63,053 nt of DNA from a virus, in the IMG/VR virus record IMGVR_UViG_3300037076_000066, positions 1 to 63,053 of that record; one strand, written 5' to 3'. Made by a program: the position numbers and the translations under genes. The notes beneath the pieces are model-generated. The model saw nothing but the letters and a program-made list of their open reading frames with translations, was not told the origin of the DNA and did no database searches. This document shows positions 1-46,271 of this stretch, piece by piece (positions within the stretch are counted from its first letter, which is position 1; the number at the start of each line of letters is the position of its first letter).

Positions 1-1547
1 ACTGCGCCAGTTTCAAGGAAGTTATTTCCACGGAAACCCATCAAGATTAAGTTTTCTTGCATATAAGGATTCTTATATACTTGGAAACGACTTGCAAAGT
101 TACCTACTTTGGAAACACCCATTGCGAATTTGGCACTATCACCATCTGTATTAACTACGAATCCGGGAATTGATTCCAGAATAGTAGCAACAGCAGGTCC
201 TACGACCATGAAGTTAGCACCACCACGGAGAGTCAACTGATGAATGCTGTTCGAGATTTTCTGAATCTTGTTACCAAGAGTCTGATACCACGAAGCTTTG
301 GTGTAGTAACCGAAACCAGCACCAGCACCAGCACTAACAGAGTTATCAACTACTTGATAAGCATTAGCACCAGTCTTGATGATATCACGGTTAATCTTAG
401 CACTCCAACGTTCTTTGTTGATGTTAGGAGCACCCGTAATTAACATGTCAAGGATTTCGAGATCGATTTCCATTGATACATATTCGGAGAGCAATGCCGT
501 TAATTCTGCTTCGGCATCAACGCTATGATAAGCATTCAAATCTTGAGCTAGTTCAGGAGTCCAAACAGCTTTTAATTTGCGAGTTTTAGCAACAATCGGT
601 TCACTGTTCAACTGGAGGTTGATTTCAGGAATTCCGATGTCGGTGTGAAGACCAGTAGAAGTTCCAGAAGCATCAGCAGTCAAACCTTTATCTTCGAAAT
701 CACCACGACCCGTATCAGTAGGTTGAATACTATAATTAACCGTATTAGTTGTAGTTACACCGGAACCACTTACAACGAACACAACTTCATTTCCACTCTT
801 ACGAGTAAATCCGGGGAAATATGTGACGATACCAGAACCACTAATCGTAAACGAACGGCAAGCCGTTAGATCCGGGGATTTAGTTCCAAGAGTAGTTGTC
901 GTAACTGTATAAAGAGTGTTGGCACCTAATGATGACGAGATAGCTTGATTGACGGGGTCATTTGCATTACCCGTATCCCAGTTAATATCCCAAGCTTGAG
1001 CAGATGCCGTTACACAACCAGTGAGTGACGCCGTCTGATCGTTTAGAGTATATCCAAACTTGCCCGGACCATATAAGCCACCAACAGGAGCATTGGTAGA
1101 ACCAAGCTTCCATGAGCCGTCAACGTCCTTACTGCCACTAACCCCACCGAATAGGGATTCGTAATCAGTACCAGAATCTTTCGTGAATGCACCGCTGTTA
1201 GAACCATATTTGAAATCCAGATAGAACACGAGTCCCGACGGGAGATTCATAGGTTGAACAGAGACGAATTCCTTGGCGGCGATTTCAGCGAATACACGAC
1301 GAACGAGGGGAAGAGCTACACCAGCCCATTGTTCGGAGTTGCCAGAAGTTCCGGTAGCGGAAGATTCTTCGATAAGCTGTTTAGCTTGGTTTTCAAGCAA
1401 TACAGACATATTTGATTTTTCAACTTGACTCTTGAGACCTTCAAGTAAGCCAGTTTTGTCCCATTTGGTCACGAGACCACGGGTTTCTTGTAATAGACGA
1501 GCTTGCGGATTAAGCGCACTAGTCAATAATTGTTTTACATCGTTCAT
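1..1547 (-). CDS. 23: Major capsid protein, T4 gp23-like (3' end cut by window edge)
   Basis: Translating the minus strand from ATG at 1545-1547 gives an open frame that runs off the left edge (about 515 codons visible). It forms the hexameric shell of the head. Recognisable gp23-family stretches are VSVQPMNLPSGLVFYLDFKYG (the QPMN-PTG-FALR region of T4 gp23), then EPIVAKTRKLKAVW-TPELAQDLNAYHSVDAEAEL, which matches the family's most conserved segment (SRALKAEYTSELAQDLKAVHGLDAE in T4; given here only in outline), and later FMVVGPAVATILESIPGF. The gene is visibly richer in G+C and in preferred codons than its neighbours, as expected for the most abundant virion protein. It lies 41 bases downstream of the scaffold-like gene, the T4 order 21-22-23 except that here the protease is elsewhere. 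The insert between residues about 130 and 240 is not shared with T4 and may be a surface domain. Identity is secure; the C-terminus is not visible. Confidence 0.93.
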   Translation of the reverse strand, partial: MNDVKQLLTSALNPQARLLQETRGLVTKWDKTGLLEGLKSQVEKSNMSVLLENQAKQLIEESSATGTSGNSEQWAGVALPLVRRVFAEIAAKEFVSVQPMNLPSGLVFYLDFKYGSNSGAFTKDSGTDYESLFGGVSGSKDVDGSWKLGSTNAPVGGLYGPGKFGYTLNDQTASLTGCVTASAQAWDINWDTGNANDPVNQAISSSLGANTLYTVTTTTLGTKSPDLTACRSFTISGSGIVTYFPGFTRKSGNEVVFVVSGSGVTTTNTVNYSIQPTDTGRGDFEDKGLTADASGTSTGLHTDIGIPEINLQLNSEPIVAKTRKLKAVWTPELAQDLNAYHSVDAEAELTALLSEYVSMEIDLEILDMLITGAPNINKERWSAKINRDIIKTGANAYQVVDNSVSAGAGAGFGYYTKASWYQTLGNKIQKISNSIHQLTLRGGANFMVVGPAVATILESIPGFVVNTDGDSAKFAMGVSKVGNFASRFQVYKNPYMQENLILMGFRGNNFLETGA

Positions 1548-1588
1548 AATTTTATTTTATTTTTTGGTTTCTAAGTTTATCTCGACCG

Positions 1589-2884
1589 TTATTTGTTTAC
1601 TATCTTAATTCCAGCGAGTTCTTGGAATCTTGATCTACTTAAAGCATTTTCAGAAATAATTTCTTTCGTTTGCTTTTCCGTTACAACTTGTTTGCTAGTA
1701 GCGAGACCTTCAGTGATGGCAGCAACTCTTGCAGGTGAAACTGATTTAGCAGTTACTTTCTTAGGAGTTGAGGTTGCACTGAAACTTAGAGCATCGGCAT
1801 AGTTAGCGAACGTCTGTTTAACTTCACGAATATTGCGGGACAAATCAAACATTTCAACGATTCGCAATTTCTGCTCACCATTGATGCTGTGTTCTTTAAA
1901 TAGCTTATTCGTGTAAAGCAATTTAGCGTTCAGCAAGTTGATTTCATTAAGTTCATTTTTAAGAAAACTAATAGCATTGGATTGCTCAGTAATTGTCTTA
2001 TTAGCTTCGGTTAATTTGGCAGTTGATTCAAAATCTCCACCACTATTAGGACGAGCCGCTTTCAATGCCGGACCAGATGTTCCACCTAGTTTCGGAGTTG
2101 ATAGATTAGTTGGGGTAGCGTTTTTTGCTACATTAGGACGTTTGGCAGTAGTTGCATCTTTTGCTTCTACAGTGCTTTCCGGCATTCCATTATCAGTAAC
2201 ACCACCCGATTCAAGTTTGGAACTTGAAGATGCAGCACTAGCAGGTTTATTGGAACCACCAGTTTTACCACCAATACCAGATGATTTTAGTTTAGTATCT
2301 TCATCCAATTTTTCTTTTTCTTCGTCATCTTCCGAGGCAATTTCTTTCTTCAAAGATTCGAGTAATTCATCTAAATCGAGTTCTTCATCCATTCCGGCAC
2401 CAGCACCATTCGGTTCGGACGGAGGTAATTCGGGTTCAGCACCCATATCACCAGTCGGTTCCGCACCCATGCCAGCCGAAGGAGCAGCAACAACAATAAC
2501 AGGAGCCTGAACAACCGGAGTTCCTTCAGGAGCAGTAGTTCCTTCCGGAGCAGGAGTAGCAACGGCAGGAGCAGCACCAGTCGGTGCAGTAGGTCCTTCG
2601 GGAGCAGGAGATTCTTCACCACCACCAACAGGTTCGCCCGTTGAACCTTCAATATCAGATTCTAATTCTTTAATGAGAGAATCAATATCGGCTTCACCAA
2701 CAACAGATTCATCTTCCATAGGAGCAGAAGTAGCCGATTCTTTTTTAAGTTTTTCGGCAAATAGTGCTTGGTATTTATCATTGAATTGTTCTTCAAGAGC
2801 AACTTTAGCATTGGCCAGAGCAGTTTGTCTTACGGCTTTTGCCAGAGCAATTGCTTCGGTAATTTCAGATTTAGTAGTATTCAT
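1589..2884 (-). CDS. Probable prohead scaffold/core protein (gp22-like position)
   Basis: 431 residues, directly upstream of the capsid gene and co-oriented with it, where T4 has the scaffold gene 22. Residues 1-60 are helical and charged; residues 60-170 are a low-complexity Pro/Ala/Gly/Glu tract; residues 170-200 are very acidic (EDDEEKEKLDED); the C-terminal third is again helical and basic and ends with SRFQELAGI. A closing (R/F)xQELAGI motif is, to my recollection, common in scaffold proteins of T4-like phages. Known role of the family: assembly core that is degraded by the prohead protease. The assignment rests mainly on position and composition, not on sequence similarity that I can verify, so a decoration or internal head protein is possible. 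Confidence 0.6.
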   Translation of the reverse strand: MNTTKSEITEAIALAKAVRQTALANAKVALEEQFNDKYQALFAEKLKKESATSAPMEDESVVGEADIDSLIKELESDIEGSTGEPVGGGEESPAPEGPTAPTGAAPAVATPAPEGTTAPEGTPVVQAPVIVVAAPSAGMGAEPTGDMGAEPELPPSEPNGAGAGMDEELDLDELLESLKKEIASEDDEEKEKLDEDTKLKSSGIGGKTGGSNKPASAASSSSKLESGGVTDNGMPESTVEAKDATTAKRPNVAKNATPTNLSTPKLGGTSGPALKAARPNSGGDFESTAKLTEANKTITEQSNAISFLKNELNEINLLNAKLLYTNKLFKEHSINGEQKLRIVEMFDLSRNIREVKQTFANYADALSFSATSTPKKVTAKSVSPARVAAITEGLATSKQVVTEKQTKEIISENALSRSRFQELAGIKIVNK

Positions 2885-3032
2885 ATTTTATTTTCGTTTT
2901 TTGTTAATCTGAAGTTATTGGAACTCCAATCAAGAATTTTTTATTAATGTGCCAGCACAAGAATGCTGTATTATAAATATAAATATATATTAAAAATCGA
3001 AAAACACAAAAAATCTTTATATTTATTATCAT
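2885..3032. promoter_or_regulatory. Divergent intergenic region between head genes and plus-strand genes
   Basis: 148 bases separating the divergent genes that start at 2884 and 3033. It holds two overlapping TATAAATAT copies at 2972-2986 (in plus orientation; they read ATATTTATA toward the scaffold/capsid operon) and a short inverted repeat CAGCA-N6-TGCTG at 2954-2969, which would lie in the leader of the minus-strand transcript. The plus-strand gene has its own ATATTTATT at 3019-3027. Promoter function is inferred from the same motif preceding many other structural genes. Confidence 0.5.
3019..3027 (+). promoter_or_regulatory. Start-proximal ATATTTATT element
   Basis: ATATTTATT, one mismatch from the recurrent ATATTTATA element, 5 bases before the ATG at 3033. 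Proposed late promoter. Confidence 0.4.
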
Positions 3033-3647
3033 ATGATTAATGAAAAACTACAAAACATAATAAAATCGAGGGATTCCTTAGATTTTAATGGTAAAAAAAA
3101 GTTATTAAAAATATTAAAAGAATGTAAAAAATCATATAAATCATTAATTTATGAGAATGATGATGTCGATTTAAATGTTATTGCTAAAAAATTTAATACT
3201 CAATCTGATTTTAATAGTTATGTGGCACAACATCGAGGATTACAGATTTTGCCGCAGGAAAAGCAAGCAATTGTAAATTATACATCGGCTAAACCAGTTG
3301 AGATGAATGATTTTATGGTGAAATATGAATCGACTGATGATTATTCTAACAATAATACGACAATCGTTAAAAAATTAAAAGAAGGTAATCAATTTTGTTG
3401 GACGGCGTTTTCTAAGAATACTAATATGGAATCTTCAACTAATACACAACAAGGGGATAATAATTTGCAAGAAATTGATGGAGAACAACAACCATCTACC
3501 CAACAACAAGCGAATCAGCAACAACCACCCCCTGAAGAAATTCCTAAAATTGATAATACTTTAGAAGTAATTAAAAGTGTTCCCTTTACAGATGAAACTA
3601 ATGGGGCTAAAATAGTCTCAGAATTTTTAATTAAACTTGATATCTAA
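3033..3647 (+). CDS. Hypothetical protein, Gln-rich
   Basis: 204 residues; I do not recognise the family. The N-terminal 60 residues are Lys-rich and predicted helical (LNxIIKSRDSLDF-type), the middle is mixed, and residues 135-170 are a Gln/Pro-rich linker (QQPSTQQQANQQQPPPEE). No signal peptide or membrane segment. First of three plus-strand genes (3033-4557) that lie divergent from the head operon and each carry a separate ATATTTATA-type element before the ATG, so they are probably late genes and possibly minor virion or assembly proteins. The reading frame is complete and tightly spaced with the next gene, which supports it being real. Confidence 0.7.
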   Translation: MINEKLQNIIKSRDSLDFNGKKKLLKILKECKKSYKSLIYENDDVDLNVIAKKFNTQSDFNSYVAQHRGLQILPQEKQAIVNYTSAKPVEMNDFMVKYESTDDYSNNNTTIVKKLKEGNQFCWTAFSKNTNMESSTNTQQGDNNLQEIDGEQQPSTQQQANQQQPPPEEIPKIDNTLEVIKSVPFTDETNGAKIVSEFLIKLDI

Positions 3648-3658
3648 CTATTTGAGTT

Positions 3659-3667
3659 ATATTTATA
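3659..3667 (+). promoter_or_regulatory. Start-proximal ATATTTATA element
   Basis: Exact ATATTTATA ending 3 bases before the ATG at 3671, within the 23-base gap after the previous stop codon. No Shine-Dalgarno sequence is present. Confidence 0.5.
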
Positions 3668-3670
3668 TCT

Positions 3671-3991
3671 ATGATCCTCTTAAAAGAACTATTAGATTCC
3701 ATTGATAAAGATAATAAGTCGGGTATGATATGTATTGATAATTGGAAATTGAGTGAAGTAGAATATCTTCATAACGTAGGATTTATCTTTGAAGATGATT
3801 ATAAAATGTCAACTCCGAAGCCTCCTATTATTTCTATTTATAAAAAGAAAGATAGTGCCGACGATAAAAAATCAAAGGGAACTTTCTATTTAGAAGAACC
3901 TGATAAGAGTATTAAGACCTTTAACGAATTTAAAGATATGATACTTTTCTTTGATAAATATGAACAAAGCGAGATTGACGATAGAGAATAA
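3671..3991 (+). CDS. Hypothetical protein
   Basis: 106 residues, acidic, no recognised family. It contains a central basic-to-acidic segment (YKKKDSADDKKSKG) and an otherwise mixed alpha/beta composition without Cys clusters, signal peptide or membrane segment. Its own ATATTTATA element lies 3 bases before ATG, so it may be transcribed separately from the upstream gene. The start is chosen because of that element and because the gap to the preceding stop is only 23 bases. Confidence 0.65.
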   Translation: MILLKELLDSIDKDNKSGMICIDNWKLSEVEYLHNVGFIFEDDYKMSTPKPPIISIYKKKDSADDKKSKGTFYLEEPDKSIKTFNEFKDMILFFDKYEQSEIDDRE

Positions 3992-4014
3992 TCAAATAAA
4001 ACACAATTTCAAAT

Positions 4015-4023
4015 ATATTTATA
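4015..4023 (+). promoter_or_regulatory. Start-proximal ATATTTATA element
   Basis: Exact ATATTTATA followed by CCT and the ATG at 4027. Same geometry as the element at 3659. Confidence 0.5.
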
Positions 4024-4026
4024 CCT

Positions 4027-4557
4027 ATGAGCATTTTAAAAAATACCAAGTTATCCCTCAAACAAATTGTTGAGAATTTAGATAAAATTCCATCTTCTAC
4101 CGGATTTGATGATGAGCCGAAGAAATTAACACCAGAACAAAAGAAACGTTTAATGGAGATGGCCGCACAATTTGAAAAATTCGGAGAAGTATTTAGAAAT
4201 GAAGCCGCTATTTTAGAATCTACTAAATCAATGACGGAATTATGTGAATTAGCGGAGACTTACGCTGTTAATGAGTGCCCCGATGTCTTTCAGAGCGACA
4301 TCGTGAAGAAGGATATGGTTAATATGAAAAAACATATTTCGGAACACAGCAAAATCGCTAAGGAATGTTATGCTAGAATGCAACAGCTACGAGTCTCTCA
4401 TGAAAACATCGGGCACATTTTGAATAGGTATTATAATCTCAAAGAAATTGCTGAAAGTATGGGATTTACTCCGTCTAGTGCTACTACAGTTGCCGGAACA
4501 CCACAAACTCCATTGGAAATTGGTGCGGCTCCTCAAGTAATGGAACGCAAGAAATAA
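4027..4557 (+). CDS. Hypothetical helical protein
   Basis: 176 residues, family not recognised. Predicted almost entirely helical: EQKKRLMEMAAQFEKFGEVF at residues 38-57 and repeated amphipathic stretches to about residue 145, then a disordered Ser/Thr/Ala/Pro tail. The closing residues MERKK are basic. Last gene of the plus-strand trio; it converges with the zinc-ribbon gene at 4571-4849 (13-base gap). A late promoter-like element precedes its start. A role in the virion or as an assembly factor would be a guess from location only. Confidence 0.7.
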   Translation: MSILKNTKLSLKQIVENLDKIPSSTGFDDEPKKLTPEQKKRLMEMAAQFEKFGEVFRNEAAILESTKSMTELCELAETYAVNECPDVFQSDIVKKDMVNMKKHISEHSKIAKECYARMQQLRVSHENIGHILNRYYNLKEIAESMGFTPSSATTVAGTPQTPLEIGAAPQVMERKK

Positions 4558-4570
4558 TCATTACTTCTTA

Positions 4571-4849
4571 CTAATCGCCATAACAAGTTCCTTTGGGACA
4601 TCGTTTAACTTTAACAAATCTTTTACGTTTTAAACATTCCGGACAAGGGATATAAGTTACTGGTTCTTTCCAATTATCCGTTATTTTTCTAATTTTTACA
4701 TTATCAGCATCTCGCTCTTTAATGGGCATCCATATTCTTTTCGTTATATAATATTTAACGCAACATGCAGGTATTCCTGAGTGGACGAGTCCACATTCTA
4801 TATGGTGAGGAATTTCAACTAAATTTAAATATATATTTGTTTTCGTCAT
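4571..4849 (-). CDS. Small Cys-rich (zinc-ribbon-like) protein
   Basis: 92 residues with seven cysteines: C20, a CC pair in GIPACCVKY, a CPEC knuckle in YIPCPECLKRKRF and C-x5-C at the C-terminus (RCPKGTCYGD). The pattern suggests one or two metal-binding ribbons, but no named family is recognised. It ends with TAG, which is rare among phage genes here. Expressed on the minus strand, convergent with 4027-4557. Function unknown; small nucleic-acid-binding proteins of this sort are frequent in accessory regions of large phages. Confidence 0.6.
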   Translation of the reverse strand: MTKTNIYLNLVEIPHHIECGLVHSGIPACCVKYYITKRIWMPIKERDADNVKIRKITDNWKEPVTYIPCPECLKRKRFVKVKRCPKGTCYGD

Positions 4850-4884
4850 ATCTTCTTAAAAGACTTTTTTATTGATGAAGATAT

Positions 4885-17006: not shown

Positions 17007-20000
17007 TTATTCCGATTTTACATTTTCGTCAATTGTGGGTGATACAGTTACATCGATAATGTTCTCGGCTATGATAGTAGATGGAGTCGGATCGAAAAAT
17101 TCACGCAATCCCATTATAAATTCACCTTTATTCTTTTTATTACTGGGTTTGGGTTTTAATTGTCCCTTAACTTCTTCCAATGATAGAGGAGAATCATTTT
17201 CAAAGTTGTGATATAATACACTCTTTCTCTTACCTTCACTATTTTTTCGAGGTTTTCTATTTAATTCATTTTGCCCAAGGGGGTCTTCTCCAAAGGGATG
17301 ATCATTGGCATCGTGTTCACCCGACTGATCTCGGTCGGGACTATGTTCTTCCTTAACTATATCTTCCGGTTTACCTTCTTCTGGTTCTTCGGCAGGTATT
17401 CCCTGTTTATCAGATTCACCCTTCTCATCTTCCGGCGTACCTCCCTCGCCTTCACCTTCTTCGTCACCACCGCCTAATCCCCCAAGACCACCCATTCCGC
17501 CACCACCACCACCACCCGACGAAGAGCCTTTTTCTCCACCATGCCCACCAGCACCAATTTTCTTAAACGGTTTAGCCGGATCATCTCCTTCCGTTTCAAT
17601 AGATTCTAATCTAAATTTCTGCTTGGCATCTTCAACTAATCCCTTGGTAACTTTTTCAATATCATCATCTGACATTTTAAATACATTTTTATATATCCAT
17701 TCACGATTATATATTTTATTATCAATCATATCCGTTGCCAATGCCGTCTTATCCGACCAAATTTCTAATTTTTCTTTTTCAAAGATAGTGCTGGAATTAG
17801 TAAGTTCAACTTTAAAATCAATTAAACTCTCATCACGATATCCTTGAGCATATAAATGAATAATACCAATATTTTCTAATTCACTCCCTATTATCTTCTG
17901 AATCCGTTGAATAGTTCTCGCAAATCGCAAATCTTCCTGCGATAAATTTGCTTTGCCTCCGGTTGATTCATCAAAAGTTAAGAATGCTTTAGGCATTTTT
18001 AATGCGGCAAACATCTTATTTTTAAGATAATCAATATCATCAATACCTGTCCATTCCATTCCGGGCAATGTATCAATTTTCGTTCCTGAATCGCCACCAC
18101 GAACTGGAATAAATAAATCGTCCAACATGTTTTGAAGATTGAATTTTAAATTATATTCACCCGTTCGCTCATCAACATATGGAACTTTTCTCATCTTATC
18201 CATCAACCTCTGCATATGATTATCAACTTCAGCCGGAGCAATACCACCAATATCTGTATAATAAATACGACGTTCTGGAGCACGAACAACACGATGGATC
18301 ATCATTGCGTCTTCGAGAAGACTCAATTGCTTCCATACCCTCCGTGCTCCCTCAATCACACTCTTACCGTAGGGAATGAAATTGGAGTCGCTCAATAATC
18401 TAAAATGAGACATCTGATATCGTTCCAAAACTTCTGCTTGGGATGTATCGGTTGGACGAATTTGAAATTTTACATATTTCTTATTATAAGGATCAGAATT
18501 TTCAATTCTCTCAACATTATAAGTAGAAATCGGTTCCACCATATAAACACCATATTCGGGATTTACATAAGTTTTTAAGTAAAAATCACCATATTTAACA
18601 AGATTTCTTGTCCATGACCAAAGATTAAAGTCAACATGTAAAATTTCTTCATAAAGATTATATAATATCTCTTTTATGTTATTATCTTCGCAATGAACTG
18701 TTACTATTTTACCTAATTCGTTCATGGTTACGCATTCATCACTGTAGATGTCCAATGCGCTAGACAAGATCGGATCTTGATCCATCGTATTGTGACAGAA
18801 TACACTATCCGTAGCAAAGTTTTGATATTTTTCTACAGTAACATCATAAACATCAATTTCACCTACACATTCAATAGAAACTATTTTATGATTTAATTTA
18901 GAAACTATTTCATTTTTAAAAGTATTATTTTGTTCTATGTTAGACATAAAACGTTCTTCATACATAAATTTTGAATAACTTGATACCTCGTTTATAATTT
19001 TTTCCGAATCTTCGTGTTTTATCTTCGGAAAATTTGATTTTAACAAATCTGTATTGGTGACATGATCTGGGCAACTGACATGACACTTTCTACAAAGGGG
19101 AATAAGATTATTTTCATTATTAGCATCTAGGGGATTTTCAAATAGGCGAGGCGTTATTATATGATGAACCGATAATGTCTCGTTCAGTTCTTGTTCATTT
19201 TTAGCACATTCTTGACATACATATTGATACTTTTCTCTTATTTTCTCTCGCAATTCATGCCAGCCCGAAGATTTTAAATATGGTTCTTTAACCTTCCAAG
19301 TATCACCCCCAACATACAAATAATGATTTTCACCCTTAAACGAAGTTGAAAATACTTGTAATCTACATTCATCCGAACAATATTTTGATTTTTTATTTTT
19401 TGGAGTAATATTATATTCTTTTCCACATGACTTACATTGATTTTGGTATAACACGGTGGGTCCGGTAGTTTCACCTAGTATCATACATTCTTTTGAACAA
19501 TATTTTTTATTGTTTGGATTTAAGAATTCCACATTACAACTAAGACAAACTGTTTTATTTCCTTTATATGCCGGGCAATTTTCTCCCCTAAAATTAATAC
19601 TTCTATAATTAGCATAACACGCAAGAGAACAGAATTTGTTGGGACTACTATCAAAAAATCCAAAATTTTCTTTACAAGCTGGACAATTCTTATAATGAAA
19701 TTCTCTATATGCATTTAAGCCGGGTTGATATATTTTATTATCTTTCTGATAAAAAGGCATTACCGACTCGCCAACTCTTAAATCTTTAATGACCTTATAT
19801 TCCCCATTCCTCATAAGAAATGGATGCCCTTCACTTCCAATGACGAATTTACCATCATCAAATACAACTTTCCAGCCAACTCTTTTACCTTCTTTTTTAC
19901 GAGGATGATATGCATTACCCAATTTCATAGAATCTGATTCATGATCATAAGAAAACACATGAAACCGTTCTTGGGGCGAATCTTTATATTTTTCTGTTAA

Positions 20001-20345
20001 TTCTGCAATAGTTGGGTAAGTTCCGTCTGGTAGAGGAATAATAGTTTCGCCCGCAATACAATCATAATCCCTAAACAAATCCATTCTTGCGGCTTGATAA
20101 GATAGAGTAAAATCTCTGGTATAAGCATTATAAGCAGTTGAACGAATTCTATTAAATCGGTCTCTTAGAGAATTTCTATCCGTTGCCATTTGAGAATGGT
20201 CAACATCCTTAACTAATAATTTTTTACCACCAACATTTCTTACGATTGTATCGGATGAAAATAAAGTCTTTAATCTTGCATATAACGATTGCTTTTTAAT
20301 ATCAAGAATATCATCTTGCATCTGTGGATTGGTATTTAATGCCAT
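17007..20345 (-). CDS. 20: Portal protein, T4 gp20-like, containing an HNH intein
   Basis: 1112 residues as translated; 688 after removal of the intein at residues 96-519. Portal sequence flanks the intein at the conserved motif FRDYD|TMDQDPILSSALDIYSDE. Further gp20-like blocks are YGDFYLKTYVNPEYGVYMVE, FIPYGKSVIEGARRVWKQL and MHRVVRAPERRIYYTDIG. It forms the dodecameric ring through which DNA is packaged. The C-terminal 180 residues are an unusual addition: a Gly-rich run, a strongly acidic Glu/Gly tract and a basic tail (KPKPSNKKNKGE). It follows the terminase directly, and an ATATTTATA element lies 3 bases before its ATG. Without intein splicing the protein cannot fold normally. Confidence 0.93.
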   Translation of the reverse strand: MALNTNPQMQDDILDIKKQSLYARLKTLFSSDTIVRNVGGKKLLVKDVDHSQMATDRNSLRDRFNRIRSTAYNAYTRDFTLSYQAARMDLFRDYDCIAGETIIPLPDGTYPTIAELTEKYKDSPQERFHVFSYDHESDSMKLGNAYHPRKKEGKRVGWKVVFDDGKFVIGSEGHPFLMRNGEYKVIKDLRVGESVMPFYQKDNKIYQPGLNAYREFHYKNCPACKENFGFFDSSPNKFCSLACYANYRSINFRGENCPAYKGNKTVCLSCNVEFLNPNNKKYCSKECMILGETTGPTVLYQNQCKSCGKEYNITPKNKKSKYCSDECRLQVFSTSFKGENHYLYVGGDTWKVKEPYLKSSGWHELREKIREKYQYVCQECAKNEQELNETLSVHHIITPRLFENPLDANNENNLIPLCRKCHVSCPDHVTNTDLLKSNFPKIKHEDSEKIINEVSSYSKFMYEERFMSNIEQNNTFKNEIVSKLNHKIVSIECVGEIDVYDVTVEKYQNFATDSVFCHNTMDQDPILSSALDIYSDECVTMNELGKIVTVHCEDNNIKEILYNLYEEILHVDFNLWSWTRNLVKYGDFYLKTYVNPEYGVYMVEPISTYNVERIENSDPYNKKYVKFQIRPTDTSQAEVLERYQMSHFRLLSDSNFIPYGKSVIEGARRVWKQLSLLEDAMMIHRVVRAPERRIYYTDIGGIAPAEVDNHMQRLMDKMRKVPYVDERTGEYNLKFNLQNMLDDLFIPVRGGDSGTKIDTLPGMEWTGIDDIDYLKNKMFAALKMPKAFLTFDESTGGKANLSQEDLRFARTIQRIQKIIGSELENIGIIHLYAQGYRDESLIDFKVELTNSSTIFEKEKLEIWSDKTALATDMIDNKIYNREWIYKNVFKMSDDDIEKVTKGLVEDAKQKFRLESIETEGDDPAKPFKKIGAGGHGGEKGSSSGGGGGGGMGGLGGLGGGDEEGEGEGGTPEDEKGESDKQGIPAEEPEEGKPEDIVKEEHSPDRDQSGEHDANDHPFGEDPLGQNELNRKPRKNSEGKRKSVLYHNFENDSPLSLEEVKGQLKPKPSNKKNKGEFIMGLREFFDPTPSTIIAENIIDVTVSPTIDENVKSE
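18789..20060 (-). other. Intein in portal gene with HNH homing endonuclease and zinc knuckles
   Basis: 424 residues, from Cys96 (CIAGETIIPLPDG) to the C-terminal CHN before Thr520, all canonical splice residues. Block B-like GSEGHPFLMRNGEY and block F/G-like IDVYDVTVEKYQNFA-VFCHN are present. The endonuclease part has several CxxC-type knuckles (NCPACKENF, VCLSCNVEF, QCKSCGKEY, each followed by CS-C) and an HNH core at SVHHIITPRLFENPLDANN with CRKCH. Insertion is between Asp95 and Thr520 at the most conserved portal motif. Boundaries follow directly from extein continuity. Confidence 0.92.
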
Positions 20346-20394: not shown

Positions 20395-23271
20395 TTAGCC
20401 TAAGAGCCATTTGAGTGACTCAGTGCTATTTTTATCTAAAGGTCTATTAGGTGATCGACCCGTTGACATTTCCCATGATTGTTGTGCCACATTTCTTGCT
20501 TGTGCTTTAAACACGGGAGTTGTATCTAATTGAGTTTTATTCATATGAGATAATGATGCCTTGGTTAAATCAATTCCTTGTTGTCGCAATTTTAATGCCG
20601 TATCACGAATCCATAAACATATGCCTAATGCCATAGATAAATCGTCATGATATCCTTGCATGGCCTGTGCCTTCCCATTTTTCCAAATAAAAGTTTCTAA
20701 TTCTGACAATGTTCTAATAGAGTTTATTTGGATAGTTCGTTCTCTCATATATCTTTCTAAGGTTGATATTACCAGTGGTCGTGTTTGAGTATTTGTGCTA
20801 AATCCAGCTTGAGCTTTTTGTTCTTCTCGATTATAATTGTTATTATGTTGACTCTCTACATCAACATACTTCAAATCATTAGTCATATAAAATAAATTGG
20901 GATAACTTTTATCTATAACAGCTTGAATAACTGCATATCCTGTATTTTGCCGCTCAATTACTAATAATGCATTATTATATTCACTGGACAATGCGACTAG
21001 TAAATTCCCAAATTCTTTAGTATTTATATGTCCTCTATATTCAGCACATTGCTCTAATGTTACAGCATCTATTACATGGCATGCTTGATAATCACCCGTA
21101 TCATTTCCCGCCGAGGTATCGGCACTAACAATATATGTTGAATTGCATTCAGGATATTTCCAAATCCATAATGATTTATCTACATATCGACATTCGATTG
21201 GATCTTTTTTAAATGTTTTTTTATAGAATTCGATGGTTGCTAAGTCTACTACAGTATCACCCGACGTTAAGAAGTCACAGTCAAACTCACGTGCTGCTTC
21301 TTTTACTGATGGCTGTTTTAATCCCGCAACCCTTCGCCACTCTTCATCTCGGTCAGGGTGTAATTGCCATGGAAGACTGATGGGATGGAATCCGTTTTTT
21401 CCAATTTTACCATCTACACTATCTTCCGCACTTACCCACATTTTATGAAAGAAATTGCCAACGCCACGGGGAGTTTGATGCCCTATTATTCCGTTATATA
21501 TTACCGAATGACACCAGAAATCATTGGCATCTTCTTGTAATGAAAAATCATAAGTTTCATTCTCCGATGGAGTTATAGATGTAATTTCACACCACACAGT
21601 ATTCTCGTGGATAATAGTATTCCAATAGTTCTGATACTCGTTTGGCATTTTAGTTCCAAATAATGAGTATAATGCTATTACATTTTGTCGGGCTATATCA
21701 TCGGTTTTATATATTCGTTTTGAATTACAGTATTGATTTACAACTACTCCACATTTTTGTTTTATTTCTACAAAATTTAAATTTGAACTATCAACTAAGT
21801 CATTGACAAGTTTAAGAGAGTTCGGGATAATATCTTTACTACATGCTCGTGTTATATTTTTTACCAAATGTTTAGATATTGCGTCTTGTTTTCGAACTAA
21901 ATTAAATCCGACCAAATTAAAATACGTTAGTGCGTATTTTCCTACTATTTGAAATTGATATGTATCATGATTGTGTTTTATGGAATGCTTTCTATTGTTA
22001 CATTGTTCTTTAGTTTGTAAATAAATACCACCCATAATTCCGAAGTTGGATAATATCATCCTAACTTGATTTATTAATAATCTTGAGGTTGATGTTAACT
22101 GAACACATCTATTTGTAGCAGAACCATCCCCATCAAATATTCCACGCAACATCCACTTTGTATTTTCTTCATTCAATTGTAATAATTTTTTCGGAATACA
22201 TTTTTGATATGCTTTGTTAGATAGGTTAAACCCTAAATATTCCATGAATTCTATTAAATTTTTGTTAGATATAGTATAATGCATACCATCCCAGCAGTTG
22301 TAAATTAGATTTAACTTATCGAAAATCCAAGATATATCGTCCCCGCATGTAATTGTAAGAGACGCCCCGGTCATTTCTCCTTGTTTATTTCTGACTTTAT
22401 AAACACTACCTTCAGATATGTATAATCCCACCAAGTAACATAAGTCTGGAGTAATTGAATCGGGCTTAAATGGTGAATGTATTTTATTAGAAACACTAGG
22501 TTTAAAATCAGAAATATCGGTATAGTTTCCCCATATTCTTTTCCCAATTTGATGAGATATATAATCCCCGACACTTAAATCTTCAGATTTATACCACCCA
22601 TATTGTTTGATATCATGTTTAAATGCCCATAATTTATGATTATTAGTGCATTCCAACTCTGAAAATTTCGTTTTTACTATATTGGTTTTTTGTATCCCGT
22701 TATTGTGAATAAGATTCCCACATCTTAATTTCTCGACCCCCAACACATTATAGGTAGGAACTTCATATCCACCAATCTTAGACGTGTCAATGAATTCTCC
22801 AATTTCCTTTATACCAGTGGATGTAATAACCATCGTATCTTTAGTAACGCACGACAATAATATACATTTACCTCCGGTGCTAAGGGCCGGGGACGCCGAA
22901 GAGAACAGTTCTTCTCCATCTTCTAATAGCGCACAATTACTGGATAACACTCCATTAGCAAAAAATTCATTATTTTTTTCAACCGAGTTTAAGTCGTATA
23001 GATCGATAGGTCTATTCATCTTCCGAGTTGATTTTACTGTTAATATATGGTCTTTTCCAATAAATTGCATTCCTTTTTTTATTTCCCTCACGTATATAAA
23101 TTCATTGGATGCCAGTTTAAGTTTATGATTTTCAGAGCATTTGATATATGTCCCATCCGTAAACTTAACATTTATATAAATTTCTTTTTGTAATTTGGAA
23201 ACCGCTTTGAAACTACTCCATCCATTAGGAGTTAACACTTCCCAGTTATTTATTTTCTTGATATCTTTCAT
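20395..23271 (-). CDS. 17: Large terminase, C-terminal half (TerL-C) with split-intein C part and a second intein
   Basis: 958 residues. Residues 1-112 are the C-terminal part of a split intein; 113-140 are extein (CALLEDGEELFSSASPALST-); 141-599 are a complete LAGLIDADG intein; 600-958 are the rest of the terminase, starting TPRGVGNFFHKMW. The extein carries the ATPase coupling segment and the RNase H-like nuclease: Asp in VSADTSAGND, Glu in LLVIERQNTG, Asp in GYHDDLSMALG. After both splicing reactions it should join TerL-N to form a packaging motor and headful nuclease of about 550 residues. TerL-N ends 21 bases upstream in the same frame, separated by stop codons. Confidence 0.93.
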   Translation of the reverse strand: MKDIKKINNWEVLTPNGWSSFKAVSKLQKEIYINVKFTDGTYIKCSENHKLKLASNEFIYVREIKKGMQFIGKDHILTVKSTRKMNRPIDLYDLNSVEKNNEFFANGVLSSNCALLEDGEELFSSASPALSTGGKCILLSCVTKDTMVITSTGIKEIGEFIDTSKIGGYEVPTYNVLGVEKLRCGNLIHNNGIQKTNIVKTKFSELECTNNHKLWAFKHDIKQYGWYKSEDLSVGDYISHQIGKRIWGNYTDISDFKPSVSNKIHSPFKPDSITPDLCYLVGLYISEGSVYKVRNKQGEMTGASLTITCGDDISWIFDKLNLIYNCWDGMHYTISNKNLIEFMEYLGFNLSNKAYQKCIPKKLLQLNEENTKWMLRGIFDGDGSATNRCVQLTSTSRLLINQVRMILSNFGIMGGIYLQTKEQCNNRKHSIKHNHDTYQFQIVGKYALTYFNLVGFNLVRKQDAISKHLVKNITRACSKDIIPNSLKLVNDLVDSSNLNFVEIKQKCGVVVNQYCNSKRIYKTDDIARQNVIALYSLFGTKMPNEYQNYWNTIIHENTVWCEITSITPSENETYDFSLQEDANDFWCHSVIYNGIIGHQTPRGVGNFFHKMWVSAEDSVDGKIGKNGFHPISLPWQLHPDRDEEWRRVAGLKQPSVKEAAREFDCDFLTSGDTVVDLATIEFYKKTFKKDPIECRYVDKSLWIWKYPECNSTYIVSADTSAGNDTGDYQACHVIDAVTLEQCAEYRGHINTKEFGNLLVALSSEYNNALLVIERQNTGYAVIQAVIDKSYPNLFYMTNDLKYVDVESQHNNNYNREEQKAQAGFSTNTQTRPLVISTLERYMRERTIQINSIRTLSELETFIWKNGKAQAMQGYHDDLSMALGICLWIRDTALKLRQQGIDLTKASLSHMNKTQLDTTPVFKAQARNVAQQSWEMSTGRSPNRPLDKNSTESLKWLLG
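21475..22851 (-). other. LAGLIDADG intein within terminase
   Basis: 459 residues (141-599 of TerL-C). It starts CVTKDTMVITSTG and ends NGIIGHQ before Thr600, so the terminal residue is Gln rather than Asn, a known but uncommon variant. Two dodecapeptide motifs of a LAGLIDADG endonuclease are seen at about 279-289 (YLVGLYISEGSV) and 374-384 (WMLRGIFDGDGSA). Insertion lies between ILLS and TPRG, the conserved Ser/Thr coupling motif of the terminase ATPase. Confidence 0.92.
22936..23271 (-). other. Split intein C-terminal part (Int-C) of terminase
   Basis: 112 residues, beginning MKDIKKINNWEVLTPNGWSS and ending FFANGVLSSN before Cys113. The NWEVLTPNGWSSF and FTDGTYIKCSENH segments match the layout of the AceL-TerL-type Int-C. 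The penultimate residue is Ser instead of the usual His. DNA position 22933-22935 encodes the +1 Cys. Confidence 0.88.
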
Positions 23272-23292
23272 TTATTTTATAAATTGTTAGTA

Positions 23293-23394
23293 TTAACTAT
23301 ATTCTTCTAATTCGTATAAATCTTTAATTTTTACTTTTTGTATTTCTCCCGTTATCTTATTTCGGAGATCGATAATAGAATTCCCAGAGATACA
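23293..23394 (-). other. Split intein N-terminal part (Int-N) of terminase
   Basis: 33 residues (165-197 of TerL-N), starting with Cys165 in CISGNSIIDLRNK and ending DLYELEEYS before the stop. It follows the Walker B motif IIDE directly. Such a short Int-N is typical of the atypically split terminase inteins known from viral metagenomes. Confidence 0.88.
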
Positions 23395-23886
23395 CTCATC
23401 AATAATTAATATTGCCAAACTCTTACCAACACCTGACTTTTTTGTTGTGCTAGATGCTTTAATCGAACTTCCATTTACAAATTTTATAGATTTTTTATTA
23501 TTCTCTACGGTCGCTACTTTCATCCACGATGGCAACGCTTCATTGGCAAACGATACCTTTTCCAAGACTTCAATGGCGGCGTCTTGTTTTAGTGATATGA
23601 TTAATATATTTTGATCGCTTTTAAAGATTAAAGTCCAGAGTGAAAAAATCGCAACTAAAGTTGAGAGACCCATCTGTCTTGATTTTAATATTATATTATT
23701 ATCATACTCAGAAAATGCTTTTAATGTATCTTCTTGAAATGGATATAGATTAAAACTCACCGTTTTTCCAGAACTTTGAATTTTAGCATATTTTTTCATG
23801 AAATAAATCGGCGAATTTTTACAACGAGTAAATTCCTCGACGATTATCTCTTTCATCGTCATCTGTTTTTTAGGTTCCGGTATCAT
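23293..23886 (-). CDS. 17: Large terminase, N-terminal half (TerL-N) with split-intein N part
   Basis: 197 residues. ATPase motifs in order: adenine-recognition NLYPFQEDTL (about 46-55), Walker A SRQMGLST (69-76), and Walker B ILIIDE (159-164, with D163 and E164). Residues 165-197 are the Int-N. The protein is inactive alone, since the coupling motif and nuclease are encoded by the next gene; trans-splicing must ligate E164 to Cys113 of TerL-C. The ATG overlaps the TGA of the upstream gene at 23883-23886. The split sits exactly behind the catalytic Walker B acidic residues. Confidence 0.93.
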   Translation of the reverse strand: MIPEPKKQMTMKEIIVEEFTRCKNSPIYFMKKYAKIQSSGKTVSFNLYPFQEDTLKAFSEYDNNIILKSRQMGLSTLVAIFSLWTLIFKSDQNILIISLKQDAAIEVLEKVSFANEALPSWMKVATVENNKKSIKFVNGSSIKASSTTKKSGVGKSLAILIIDECISGNSIIDLRNKITGEIQKVKIKDLYELEEYS

Positions 23887-25015: not shown

Positions 25016-26002
25016 TCACCAACTTATCTTATATCTCATCGCTTTAGTATATGTAGTCAAATCTCGTTCTAAGATATATCCGTATTTATTCAATTCAAGT
25101 TTAAGAAGTCTAATCCGGTCATCGTTTAAATCATAAAAAGCATAATGCCCGTATTTAGTTTTAGTTTCACACACACCTCCCCAGTAAATAAATTTATCAC
25201 TACTCTTTGTGCCGGATGCAAAGAGTATATCATCATTAATTTCCTTCATAACTATATATAACCAATTAACTGGAATAGTTTCAGATTCGCATTCGAGTTG
25301 TCTTGCCTTGGCCTGTTCTGATGTTATCATTGGATATGTAGTTGGTTGATTAATCAATGAAGTTGAATTATTAACCATCCATTTTGCCATATCCAATGAA
25401 TTGGCATCGCAATGTTTTTGAATTATATCAAATTGTTCTTTGGGAATATTGATAACCCTTCGTTCTTTTGATGGTTCTTCTTTTTTGGTTGTTAAACCAC
25501 GAAATATCATCGTGTCGGAATTATTAATATTGAGTTCCAATTCGTTTTTGGTAATTTTACCGAGACTGGTTATCGTGGAGGTGTGGTCGCCGTCATTGTG
25601 CCGGAATATCATTTTATACTCTGTATTATAAGATGGTCTTGTTAACCATCTCGGAAGACTTGCATTTAACGATGTGACATCTTGAAAAAATTCGGTTTTA
25701 ATATCCGGATCGCTCGACTCAATATTAATATCTACTGACGTATCGACAATTATTTTCCATAGACAGTATGCAGCTATTACTTTAAACTCATCGCCCCGGA
25801 GAAATTTCAAAACAAGAACTTTTGAAGGTGTTGTTGGTGATAAATAATAGCCTATATTATCAATTATACTTTGCTGATGTATACTGAGAATTTTATTCGT
25901 GGGAATATTTGTATAATTGCATATAAAATACTCAACTGAGTTCTTACATTTTTCATATTCTCCAGTGATTAAGTTTTTCATTGTTAGTGGTTCTTTTTTC
26001 AT
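25016..26002 (-). CDS. Degenerate paralogue of the terminase ATPase domain with a different C-terminus
   Basis: 328 residues. The first 150 residues can be aligned by eye with TerL-N of this phage: TMKNLITGEYEKCKNSVEYF against TMKEIIVEEFTRCKNSPIYF, then LVLKFLRGDEFKVIAAYCLW against IILKSRQMGLSTLVAIFSLW, and TSLNASLPRWL against SFANEALPSWM. The Walker A lysine-serine loop (SRQMGLST) is replaced by FLRGDEFK, and no Walker B IIDE is found, so ATPase activity is very unlikely. The C-terminal half is unrelated to terminase: an RVINIPKEQFDIIQKHCDAN stretch resembles a ribbon-helix-helix segment. It may bind or regulate the terminase or DNA. It ends in a terminator and lies 275 bases upstream of the terminase block's small genes. 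Confidence 0.72.
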   Translation of the reverse strand: MKKEPLTMKNLITGEYEKCKNSVEYFICNYTNIPTNKILSIHQQSIIDNIGYYLSPTTPSKVLVLKFLRGDEFKVIAAYCLWKIIVDTSVDINIESSDPDIKTEFFQDVTSLNASLPRWLTRPSYNTEYKMIFRHNDGDHTSTITSLGKITKNELELNINNSDTMIFRGLTTKKEEPSKERRVINIPKEQFDIIQKHCDANSLDMAKWMVNNSTSLINQPTTYPMITSEQAKARQLECESETIPVNWLYIVMKEINDDILFASGTKSSDKFIYWGGVCETKTKYGHYAFYDLNDDRIRLLKLELNKYGYILERDLTTYTKAMRYKISW

Positions 26003-33187: not shown

Positions 33188-35527
33188 TTAAAAATCCATC
33201 TTAATTAAGAAATTTACAGGTAAACTCCCATCCAATTTTATAGGATTTCCTAATTTTGCTACTGCTATTAATTCTAATCCGCTATATAATCCTATTGTAG
33301 TTGCCATTACGTTAAGATAACTACCTGTAGGGTCATTACTTACATTATTTTTATAATTAAAAAATTCAGGAGTTATATTCTGTGGTTTATTTCTTCCGCT
33401 TAATCCGTCCAGATAATCAATGGCTAAGTTAAGTGTTTTTCTCGTTGAATTGGGAGTTATATAGGTTGGATAATTCTTTTGATTTAGTCGATTACTAAAA
33501 TATTTCCAGACAATATTCATATCTCGGATATCTACTACGTTATCGCCATTTACATCTAAATCAGTCTGAATACTAATATCATCAACATCCCATATTGGAA
33601 TATAATTTAACACTTGTTGAGATACGTAGGCATCATTATAAGTTGAACTTGATTTATAATAATTTATCAAACTTATTTCATCGGTAGCCAGTGATATAGA
33701 CGAACTCCAATCAGTTGAAAATGGCAATCCCATTGCTTGTGTATTTTTATATTCCATATACCGCAATATAATATCGACATCTTCAAAATCAAACTGCCCA
33801 TCGGAATTTAAATCGAGAATATATTCTATTTGTTCTAGTGATGTTGGATTGGTGCTAACATTAAATTCGCCGGGCGAAATTGAACATATAACTTGTTTTT
33901 CATAGATGGTATGCTCTCCATTGAAATTTAGCGTGTAAGCAGTATTGTTATCCGCTAAAAATAAATCTTGGAAAACAGAACCAGATGTCATCAATACAAT
34001 TTTACCATTTCTATAAAATACATTCCCGATATGACATGATTCGTGTAGATTGTTTAGATTGTATATATATGCTTTTCCACATATATCGCCAAGGACAACG
34101 GTATCATCGTAAAGGACAACTCCAACAATTGAATTTGCTGCGACGTTAATGCTTTGTGGCGTTGATGATATTAATAGAGGTGCGCCAACAACCATAGAAT
34201 AATCGGCAATAGAAACATTATGCCCAAATTCTCGGTAAGGGCTAAAATAGTCTTTCTTCTTTTGGAAAATATTTTCAATGCCCCAACTACCACTTTCATT
34301 TGTAAATAGTGCAACTTGACCGTTCAGCGAATTTAATACGTCGGTATCTTGGTAAGATTGAGTCAAGGTAGTTTCAATATAATTTGATGTTATAGAATTT
34401 TGATTTATCCTTGGTATACCGGCAACTGCTTTTAAATCAAACATATCAACGGAATATCCAAGATTGTTACTCCTTAATATATTCTCGTTGCCATATGTTT
34501 TATATGCTAAATCAAATAACGATGAACTCGGAGCGCATCGCTCAAATATTGATACTGATCCCTGTTGATAGTTAGCCGACCCACTATATTCATATACTGT
34601 TCTATCTAAATATTCGCCAATAATAACGGAATCTCCATAAGTAGATACGGAACTACCAAAACTACTCGATAGATTTCTTACTAAGTTATATGGAGTATAA
34701 TTACCAAATGTTAATGGATATGTGTCATAATTAGGAGTAAACGTATATGTTTGCGACCATCTACTTCCGCTATATTCAAAGAAAAACGCTTTGCATTGTG
34801 CCGGATTTCCACACCCAACTACTAATCGTCCACTAGGAGTATTAGGATCTTTATTTAATTCTACACTATAGCCGAAATTAGCATTTGATATTACATTACT
34901 GGAACTTATTTCTTGATATAAATTCCAACTACCACTCGTATTATTATATATAAATACGGACCCCGAATTATTATTCTCGGCTGGACTTCCAATGGCCAGC
35001 CAATTATTATTGATAGATACCGATGATCCAAACGAACTACTTACAAATGAATTACTTATCCGGGAAGAACTTGAAATGGTCTGAATTAATGATGATGTTC
35101 CCAACTCAAAAATATATGCAGCCGAACCACTATACGATGATGTTAAATTGAATCTGGAATATTGTTGTAAAAAATAAGGACATCCGACAACTAGATTCGT
35201 GTTCATCAAGTCTAATGATGTCCCAAATAAATTCTGAGCTTCATGAGTCGTATTATTTGCATCAATAGATAGTTCAAATGATGTTTCTGTCGTTAATATG
35301 GAACTTGTCTCGGTGGCTAATACAATATCTATGGGGGTGTGTGGACGAGTTAACGTATACATTAATATATGCTCGTCCAATGATTTATTATGTCGATAAC
35401 AATCAACGGAACCTGTATGATATACATTTGCCGATGATGAAATAAAATCTGGATTAGAAATAGCAACCCAATCAGCATATGTTGTTGTTGCTATTCCATA
35501 ATTATTATTTGTTACGTTGATATACAT
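33188..35527 (-). CDS. Tail/adhesin protein with FG-GAP-like propeller and dockerin-like repeats
   Basis: 779 residues. Residues 60-480 contain repeated blade-like motifs of the FG-GAP type: FGTSLDLMNTNLVVGCP, FGSSVSINNNWLAIGSP followed by GSVFIYN, FGSSVSTYGDSVIIGE. Residues 572-677 contain two calcium-loop repeats of dockerin type I (DLNSDGQFDFEDVDIIL and DVNGDNVVDIRDMNIVW), separated by a longer linker than usual. The last 37 residues (GLYSGLELIAVAKLGNPIKL) match the C-terminus of 38195-39280, suggesting a shared attachment module to the virion. Probably a surface-exposed tail or baseplate component binding the host surface. Confidence 0.75.
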   Translation of the reverse strand: MYINVTNNNYGIATTTYADWVAISNPDFISSSANVYHTGSVDCYRHNKSLDEHILMYTLTRPHTPIDIVLATETSSILTTETSFELSIDANNTTHEAQNLFGTSLDLMNTNLVVGCPYFLQQYSRFNLTSSYSGSAAYIFELGTSSLIQTISSSSRISNSFVSSSFGSSVSINNNWLAIGSPAENNNSGSVFIYNNTSGSWNLYQEISSSNVISNANFGYSVELNKDPNTPSGRLVVGCGNPAQCKAFFFEYSGSRWSQTYTFTPNYDTYPLTFGNYTPYNLVRNLSSSFGSSVSTYGDSVIIGEYLDRTVYEYSGSANYQQGSVSIFERCAPSSSLFDLAYKTYGNENILRSNNLGYSVDMFDLKAVAGIPRINQNSITSNYIETTLTQSYQDTDVLNSLNGQVALFTNESGSWGIENIFQKKKDYFSPYREFGHNVSIADYSMVVGAPLLISSTPQSINVAANSIVGVVLYDDTVVLGDICGKAYIYNLNNLHESCHIGNVFYRNGKIVLMTSGSVFQDLFLADNNTAYTLNFNGEHTIYEKQVICSISPGEFNVSTNPTSLEQIEYILDLNSDGQFDFEDVDIILRYMEYKNTQAMGLPFSTDWSSSISLATDEISLINYYKSSSTYNDAYVSQQVLNYIPIWDVDDISIQTDLDVNGDNVVDIRDMNIVWKYFSNRLNQKNYPTYITPNSTRKTLNLAIDYLDGLSGRNKPQNITPEFFNYKNNVSNDPTGSYLNVMATTIGLYSGLELIAVAKLGNPIKLDGSLPVNFLIKMDF

Positions 35528-45900: not shown

Positions 45901-46271
45901 TAACTTCCACTATTATAACTTCCTATCGTGTTTAAATCGCTTGGAGGATTTATTAGCAGGTTGGAATTGTTATAGGTTATAAATCCATTGCTTAATATTA
46001 CATTGGAAAAAGCGATGGGATAATTTAATGAATTTAGATAAGAATTGGATGATGTTACATTACTTGACCCCGTTATAACTCCCCATCCCATTAAGGTTTG
46101 GTCTAAATCCCATATACCAAGCTCAATTATATCGGAATTTGATGTCCCATACCATATATTCGAATTATCCGCCGAAAAATTTAGCAATGCATCGTCGGCA
46201 CTGGATAGATACGACCCACTATTAACCGGAGAGTTTTTACTGGATATAGATTGATATGAAACAAATTGCAT
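42948..46271 (-). CDS. Large tail structural protein with partial LamG and a PKD domain
   Basis: 1107 residues. Residues 1-720 are phage-type structural sequence rich in Ser/Asn/Tyr. Residues about 735-892 hold the first strands of a LamG-like domain (MFKVRFNDPEYYSKGDDNIL, IYSVLIRKNEI, PRQYDLVVKRNNSGDELLNI). The closing strands are missing and occur at the start of 40536-42311. From residue 894, PPPTLTALFTYTTSSA starts a PKD-like domain (TASFTNSSTYNGTGTLNYLW, PGAYTASLSV), followed by a terminal 115-residue domain. The DNA for the PKD and terminal domain is richer in G+C (about 45 percent over 43081-43260) than the surroundings. Likely a baseplate-associated adhesin. Confidence 0.72.
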   Translation of the reverse strand: MQFVSYQSISSKNSPVNSGSYLSSADDALLNFSADNSNIWYGTSNSDIIELGIWDLDQTLMGWGVITGSSNVTSSNSYLNSLNYPIAFSNVILSNGFITYNNSNLLINPPSDLNTIGSYNSGSYLLTYNPVRNMAGDQTSPLVIKEISPSRTEVKLLPQGLTTQKFINFYSGQVLISDIYQQYIDGLISFPANSIYNKIKSQYTGSIETINRLSSLKTDTDIINYIINIYEDVYSYSNVDNNGITTRIQGIKSYFFNYIMDNMTSSITFDNLDLEFIGIVNSVIDSKVSQLSNTITDAYYIDIKKFFYDFIVQYYYQVIADKLSSSYNNIYNSPLKNGLNFGQNQIYTILNSGAFNESDGSISLVIKLKESLPSNLSMGDTCWVSNISLSPIILNVLINDSNPIRTYAIKGPDFSIKDKNILASGGNEKYSINDINPSLIDNRNISISKKIKELTIDYTDFTKFIIFSSAEVRLKIFKNKKIQLDSLNSTINLLNTKNQDYIALNNTTYPFYTTELLNLNDQLDSIVESFDGYESYLFDLGIYDTISGVFTNTAQIQDLESSALAYDIQNRDSLIKNTPKYILEDINNDDYIIFLSMIGHFFDNIYIYISNLPGAKMTGNSLDTMLSNKMVSAILEEMGWDITDILSEDNILNYNLTGSYTAISSADRIKIIENRILKNLPLIYKTKGTQQSVDLLLACYGIPQSLLNIKEYGGYVHSSTGSCDFYERAYLYTWDESAPNDMFTLDGINSASAYMFKVRFNDPEYYSKGDDNILFGAINQSGGMYPNSSSMEGSGDWAVGFTRTDSSNSGTIYFRVGYKGQEEFKLESPEFSLFDGNIYSVLIRKNEIDPKFDISNFIGSLNQLPRQYDLVVKRNNSGDELLNISSSYINYYTPPPTLTALFTYTTSSATAPSTASFTNSSTYNGTGTLNYLWTYGSGSFTTSSVDAQLIYLNPGAYTASLSVTESSQNLTSFVTASWNIGSAGGGGDVNTYPPIEFYAEYWSSNVSPAQASFWYPTNSFYIANTSQTPITINNITVTNGNTVSINGGFPFTLSATPYQWNNPNSHKTLTVTNINHLDDARSIPGANLSDVISIYADGYTLPFIINY

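What the first reader, a model, noticed from the sequence alone, without database searches (positions are those of the whole stretch)
22933..23394. Terminase large subunit encoded as two genes joined by an atypically split intein
TerL-N stops 33 residues after the Walker B IIDE, in sequence that begins with an intein Cys (CISGNSIIDLR). TerL-C begins with 112 residues of intein ending in SSN before Cys113 and continues with terminase sequence. The short Int-N and long Int-C match the layout of the AceL-TerL-type split inteins known from viral metagenomes. Novel details here: the two genes are in the same frame and only 21 bases apart, separated by three in-frame TAA codons, suggesting a contiguous intein that was split by small mutations; no endonuclease lies between them; and the penultimate residue is Ser instead of His.
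Basis: partly seen in the sequence, partly recalled or inferred. Interest (0 to 1): 0.72.

Follow-up and report, generated by a model that had tools for sequence, protein, structure and literature searches.

The report
Phage packaging motor gene, split intein
A phage DNA-packaging enzyme is encoded as two adjacent genes whose products are very probably joined by a self-splicing split intein; relatives suggest that this compact form arose by loss of a homing nuclease gene that once lay between the halves, so it is a new member of a known kind with an informative history.

Summary
On the minus strand, TerL-N (23886-23293) ends 33 codons after Walker B IIDE. TerL-C (23271-20395) begins with 112 intein residues before Cys113. 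The 21-nt spacer is in frame and closed by TAA codons. Two other viral contigs (97-99% identical DNA) carry the same junction, and a sibling contig from the metagenome of one of them has an uninterrupted TerL with this exact site empty, so an assembly error is unlikely. Int-C matches the atypical Cat/AceL-TerL intein (E 1e-12), and the two halves together are predicted to form a complete intein fold. Trans-splicing into one TerL is the best explanation; it was not tested. Two "novel details" fail: lack of an endonuclease and penultimate Ser both recur in relatives. The suggested origin, a contiguous intein broken by small mutations, is disfavoured: the closest clade holds a split intein with a homing endonuclease gene, a split one with a relic of that gene, the window, and a contiguous intein nested among them. 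This fits endonuclease loss here and probable re-fusion in the contiguous relative.

The parts
23293..23886 (-). TerL-N gene (197 aa plus TAA stop)
   Evidence: ORF; Terminase_6N 1.6e-12; PHROG 5989 terminase large subunit 1.9e-45
23395..23886 (-). N-extein: TerL ATPase domain through Walker B LAILIIDE (164 aa)
   Evidence: Aligns to the uninterrupted TerL of L079, 86% identity
23296..23394 (-). Int-N, 33 aa, Cys1
   Evidence: Aligned with Int-N of relatives; contiguous with Int-C in L080
23272..23292 (-). 21-nt spacer with two further in-frame TAA codons; AATTTATA lies 6 nt before the TerL-C ATG
   Evidence: Sequence; identical in L002 and L003; start-site motif count
20395..23271 (-). TerL-C gene (958 aa plus TAA stop)
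   Evidence: ORF; terminase PHROG 24361 1.2e-17
22936..23271 (-). Int-C, 112 aa, ends SSN before Cys+1
   Evidence: CatC 6dsl_B 1.2e-12; 56% identical to the Int-C part of the contiguous L080 intein; model fold
22852..22935 (-). C-extein segment 1, CALLEDGEELFSSASPALSTGGKCILLS (28 aa)
   Evidence: Contiguous with Walker B in intein-free L079
21475..22851 (-). Second TerL intein, 459 aa, LAGLIDADG type, Cys1, ends HQ before Thr+1
   Evidence: LAGLIDADG_3 1.1e-12, Intein_splicing 1.5e-8; empty site in L079; boundaries
20398..21474 (-). C-extein segment 2: rest of the motor and nuclease domain (359 aa)
   Evidence: 95% identical in L079

Best explanation
The phage makes its T4-like large terminase (TerL) from two adjacent genes. 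Each carries part of an atypically split class-1 intein inserted exactly after Walker B (IIDE|C). The 33-aa Int-N docks on the 112-aa Int-C, rebuilds a full intein fold, and by the standard class-1 route (Cys1 thioester, transfer to Cys+1, Asn112 cyclisation) joins TerL-N to TerL-C. A second, contiguous intein 28 residues further on splices itself out, so that Walker B, the 28-residue segment CALLEDGEELFSSASPALSTGGKCILLS and the TPRGV segment become adjacent, as they are in the uninterrupted relative. The compact 21-nt spacer is what remained after a homing endonuclease gene between the two halves was lost. Shown by sequence: gene layout, exact insertion site, homology, conserved catalytic residues, relatives. 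Inferred: that the two proteins are made, splice and give an active terminase; the direction of evolution.
For: Int-C matches Cat, a working atypical split intein. Cys1, block-B His49, Asn112 and Cys+1 are kept. Sibling L079 has the same TerL with both sites empty (IIDE|A and ILLS|T). Read-through of both halves with S at each TAA is predicted as one intein domain, pLDDT 90.9, with only the spacer region disordered; VIA Z 18.9 to VidaL, rmsd 2.2 over 138 residues. The junction is identical in three haplotypes. In a Fletchervirus record the two TerL halves, with Int-N and Int-C, lie about 24 kb apart on opposite strands, so a phage of this family must assemble TerL in trans. Endonuclease loss: L009 carries a DUF7487-type gene between the halves; L114 keeps a relic of its 3' end (alignment score 65, best of 500 shuffles 36); tree clade 99/98, same pattern in the downstream intein.
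Against: No experiment. Penultimate Ser replaces the usual His, which can slow splicing. No Shine-Dalgarno before TerL-C, but almost no gene in this window has one. The branch that pairs L080 with L114 is modest (87/75), and holding the window with L114 is not rejected (p 0.16). The structure model used an artificial linkage of the two halves. The record is a fragment, so another TerL copy elsewhere cannot be excluded.
Confidence: 0.88

Rival explanations
1. Genes in pieces: the two TerL halves are never ligated and work as a non-covalent pair, as known for a phage ribonucleotide reductase; the intein remnants are leftovers.
For: Two separate stop-terminated genes; penultimate Ser; a non-spliced split ribonucleotide reductase is on record (cited in PMC3322345, and PMC10448857).
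Against: Cys1, His49, Asn112 and Cys+1 are all kept, and Int-N is still recognisable across diverged relatives; the cut lies directly after Walker B in the ATPase core.
Confidence: 0.07
2. The intein is contiguous and the in-frame stops are a sequencing or assembly error, or a recently broken allele.
For: Same frame; close relative L080 has a contiguous intein at this site.
Against: Three stops, not one indel; same 21 nt in three different haplotypes; relatives L009, L012, L114, L182, L185 are split at about the same point.
Confidence: 0.03
3. Split intein as in the best explanation, but created here by point mutations in a contiguous ancestor.
For: Contiguous inteins exist at this site (L006, L027, L069, L007, L080).
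Against: L009 and L114, on either side of the window in the tree, share the split and the same endonuclease gene or its relic; a grouping of the three split forms without contiguous L080 is rejected at p 0.028.
Confidence: 0.15

Closest known systems
AceL-TerL, GOS-TerL and the consensus Cat split inteins
   Same: Atypically split intein in phage TerL, short Int-N (25-37 aa) and long Int-C (104-115 aa), Cys+1 (PMC11766414); sequence and fold match to CatC.
   Different: Penultimate Ser; only about 35% identity to CatC; the genomic layout of AceL and GOS could not be checked here.
Split gp17 of T4-like phages (Krischvirus, Tequatrovirus, Tegunavirus and others)
   Same: Same insertion point after Walker B DE, Int-N and Int-C in separate genes.
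   Different: There an endonuclease is fused to TerL-N or lies between the halves; none here.
Aeromonas phage PX29 gp17A/17B
   Same: The record itself annotates a putative N-intein and C-intein in split terminase genes.
   Different: GIY-YIG endonuclease fused to the Int-C gene; different insertion point (DEAAF is uninterrupted there).
'Fractured gene' arrangement of Dassa et al. 2009 (paper not held; known from citation)
   Same: Host gene and intein broken in two.
   Different: The free homing endonuclease gene that sits in the break is missing; a relic survives only in relative L114.

Membership tests
AceL/Cat-type atypically split TerL intein | Inserted in a phage large terminase | tested here: met
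   Terminase_6N and PHROG terminase hits; empty site in L079 TerL
AceL/Cat-type atypically split TerL intein | Short Int-N (25-37 aa) and long Int-C (104-115 aa) in separate genes | tested here: met
   33 and 112 aa; ranges from PMC11766414
AceL/Cat-type atypically split TerL intein | Sequence homology to a characterised member | tested here: met
   CatC 6dsl_B phmmer E 1.2e-12
AceL/Cat-type atypically split TerL intein | Class-1 catalytic residues Cys1, block-B His, terminal Asn, Cys+1 | tested here: met
   Cys165 of TerL-N; His49, Asn112, Cys113 of TerL-C
AceL/Cat-type atypically split TerL intein | Halves together form an intein (HINT) fold | tested here: met
   Read-through model pLDDT 90.9; VidaL Z 18.9, rmsd 2.2 over 138; prediction only
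AceL/Cat-type atypically split TerL intein | Trans-splicing activity | not testable with these tools
   Needs co-expression
Fractured-gene arrangement with homing endonuclease in the break | Endonuclease gene between the two intein halves | tested here: not met
   21-nt spacer only; no DUF7487 anywhere in the record

The most novel reading that the evidence does not exclude
At one TerL site a fission-fusion cycle is caught in several states: empty (L079), split with homing endonuclease gene (L009), split with its relic (L114), compact split (window), and re-fused contiguous intein (L080). The endonuclease-less split intein may persist by being carried along with the LAGLIDADG intein 84 bp downstream, which all four members of its clade also hold.
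Probability: 0.5. Interest if true: 0.65.

Novelty: new member of a known kind. Interest (0 to 1): 0.47.

Why it matters
How split inteins arise, lose their homing genes, and whether they can re-fuse is mostly argued from distant examples (own knowledge of the field). Here relatives within one clade show intermediate states at one site, so direction and order can be tested with denser sampling. It also offers a new short-Int-N split intein pair that could be tried for protein labelling.

Tried and rejected
Alternative genetic code with TAA as a residue: rejected, 36 of 57 long ORFs end in TAA. Assembly error: disfavoured. Endonuclease relic in the window's own 21-nt spacer: no signal (against the L009 gene 485 of 500 shuffles as good; against the L114 spacer 59 of 500). 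Remaining DUF7487 gene elsewhere in the window: none. Uniqueness of penultimate Ser and of the missing endonuclease: rejected. Contiguous inteins as one clade: rejected, p 0.0001. The endonuclease of L034 was not scanned because the coordinates were wrong. The Dassa 2009 paper is not held.

Full report
What is there. Everything lies on the minus strand. TerL-N (23886-23293, 197 aa) ends 33 codons after Walker B IIDE; TerL-C (23271-20395, 958 aa) opens with 112 residues of intein before Cys113. Between them are 21 nt in the same frame; with TerL-N's own stop there are three in-frame TAA codons. TerL-N is a terminase ATPase domain. Int-C is closest among solved structures to CatC, the consensus atypical TerL intein (E 1.2e-12).

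Is it real? Two other viral contigs, from metagenomes 3300050033 and 3300050029, carry the same junction base for base, though they differ elsewhere from the window (aligned DNA about 99.0% and 97.4% identical). A third contig, L079, also from 3300050029, encodes a sibling TerL (86% and 95% identical exteins) as one uninterrupted gene...LALLIIDE|AALLDDGEELFSSASPALSTGGQCILLS|TPRGVGNFFHKMW.... This is the empty site for both TerL inteins and fixes their borders; the +1 residue of the split one is Ala in the empty allele and Cys in the intein allele. TAA is an ordinary stop here (36 of 57 long ORFs end in it).

A second intein. TerL-C also holds a contiguous 459-aa intein with a LAGLIDADG domain at 21475-22851, 84 bp downstream of the split one.

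Does it fold as one intein? Reading Int-N, spacer and Int-C as one chain (Ser at each TAA) with 15 relatives in the alignment gave pLDDT 90.9, low only in the spacer region. The model matches solved inteins along its whole length (VidaL Z 18.9, rmsd 2.2 over 138 residues) and Cat 6dsl_B over 101 columns (rmsd 1.9, 35% identity). This shows that the two parts are compatible; it does not show splicing.

Relatives at the same site. Of 150 TerL loci read from Walker B onwards, many of them near-copies, 97 had no insert between Walker B and the TPRG segment. Among intein-bearing ones the layouts are: contiguous (L006, L027, L069, L007, L080); split with an endonuclease gene between or fused (L009, L012, L046, L062, L185, Krischvirus and other T4-like phages); split without one (window, L182 with 5 nt, L011 with about 108 nt); and L114, split with about 95 nt that contain a relic of the endonuclease's 3' end (57 columns, score 65 against at most 36 in 500 shuffles). 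In a Fletchervirus record (L036) TerL-N with Int-N lies about 24 kb from TerL-C on the other strand, so that phage depends on assembly in trans.

History. A tree of Int-N plus Int-C puts the window in a well supported clade (99/98) with L009 (split, DUF7487-type endonuclease gene), L114 (relic) and L080 (contiguous); L009 branches first and L080 pairs with L114 (87/75). Holding the three split members together without L080 is rejected (p 0.028); holding the window with L114 alone is not (p 0.16). The downstream intein gives the same pattern: L080-L114 70% identical, window to either 62-63%, L009 57-58%. Because L009 and L114 share the same gene in the same break, their common ancestor, which is also the window's, was probably already split with that gene. 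So the window most likely lost it, and L080 most likely re-fused. Horizontal replacement of the whole element remains possible.

Penultimate Ser is shared with L009, L080, L013-L015, L020-L022, L024 and phage CP21. Lack of an endonuclease recurs. The 21-nt in-frame spacer is not matched among the loci seen, but sharing a frame is a 1-in-3 event, and in sequence that is about 80% A+T before starts extra TAA codons are cheap.

Expression. Genes in this window nearly all lack Shine-Dalgarno sites; ATATTTAT occurs just before 11 of 57 starts and before none of 304 internal ATGs. TerL-C has a related AATTTATA 6 nt before its ATG, which may serve its expression; this is suggestive only.

Why might a split intein without its own endonuclease persist? 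All four members of the clade also hold the LAGLIDADG intein at ILLS|T, while L011, L012, L182 and L185 have the split intein without it. The nearby endonuclease could carry the split intein along by co-conversion. This is inference; shared descent alone would give the same pattern.

Verdict. A real, very probably working split intein of the known Cat/AceL-TerL kind. The interest lies in the series of states at one site, not in the splitting itself.

Noticed in passing
18789-20060 (-): Portal (T4 gp20-like) gene 17007-20345 carries an intein with an HNH domain; sibling L079 has this site empty and two other inteins elsewhere in its portal.
   Followed up: partly
L002, TerL ORF 817-4884: TerL of L002 has a further intein at GYHDDL|C...HN|CMSLG, absent from the window.
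   Followed up: partly
L009, TerL ORF from 5001: TerL of L009 holds three inteins within about 30 extein residues (DE|C, TLS|TGG, ILLS|C).
   Followed up: partly
25016-26002 (-): Protein with an N-terminal stretch related to TerL-N (27% identity, 6e-11) but without a clear Walker A; possible terminase paralogue.
   Followed up: partly
window, starts of 11 of 57 long ORFs: ATATTTAT motif just before start codons; Shine-Dalgarno sites nearly absent.
   Followed up: partly
L036 (Fletchervirus) and L192: TerL-N with Int-N is encoded about 24 kb from TerL-C with Int-C, on the opposite strand.
   Followed up: partly
L007 103-4410: Campylobacter phage CP21 terminase region shows three intein sites, one in the Walker A region.
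   Followed up: no
33188-35527 and 42948-46271 (-): FG-GAP/dockerin-like protein and PKD-domain protein, function not examined.
   Followed up: no
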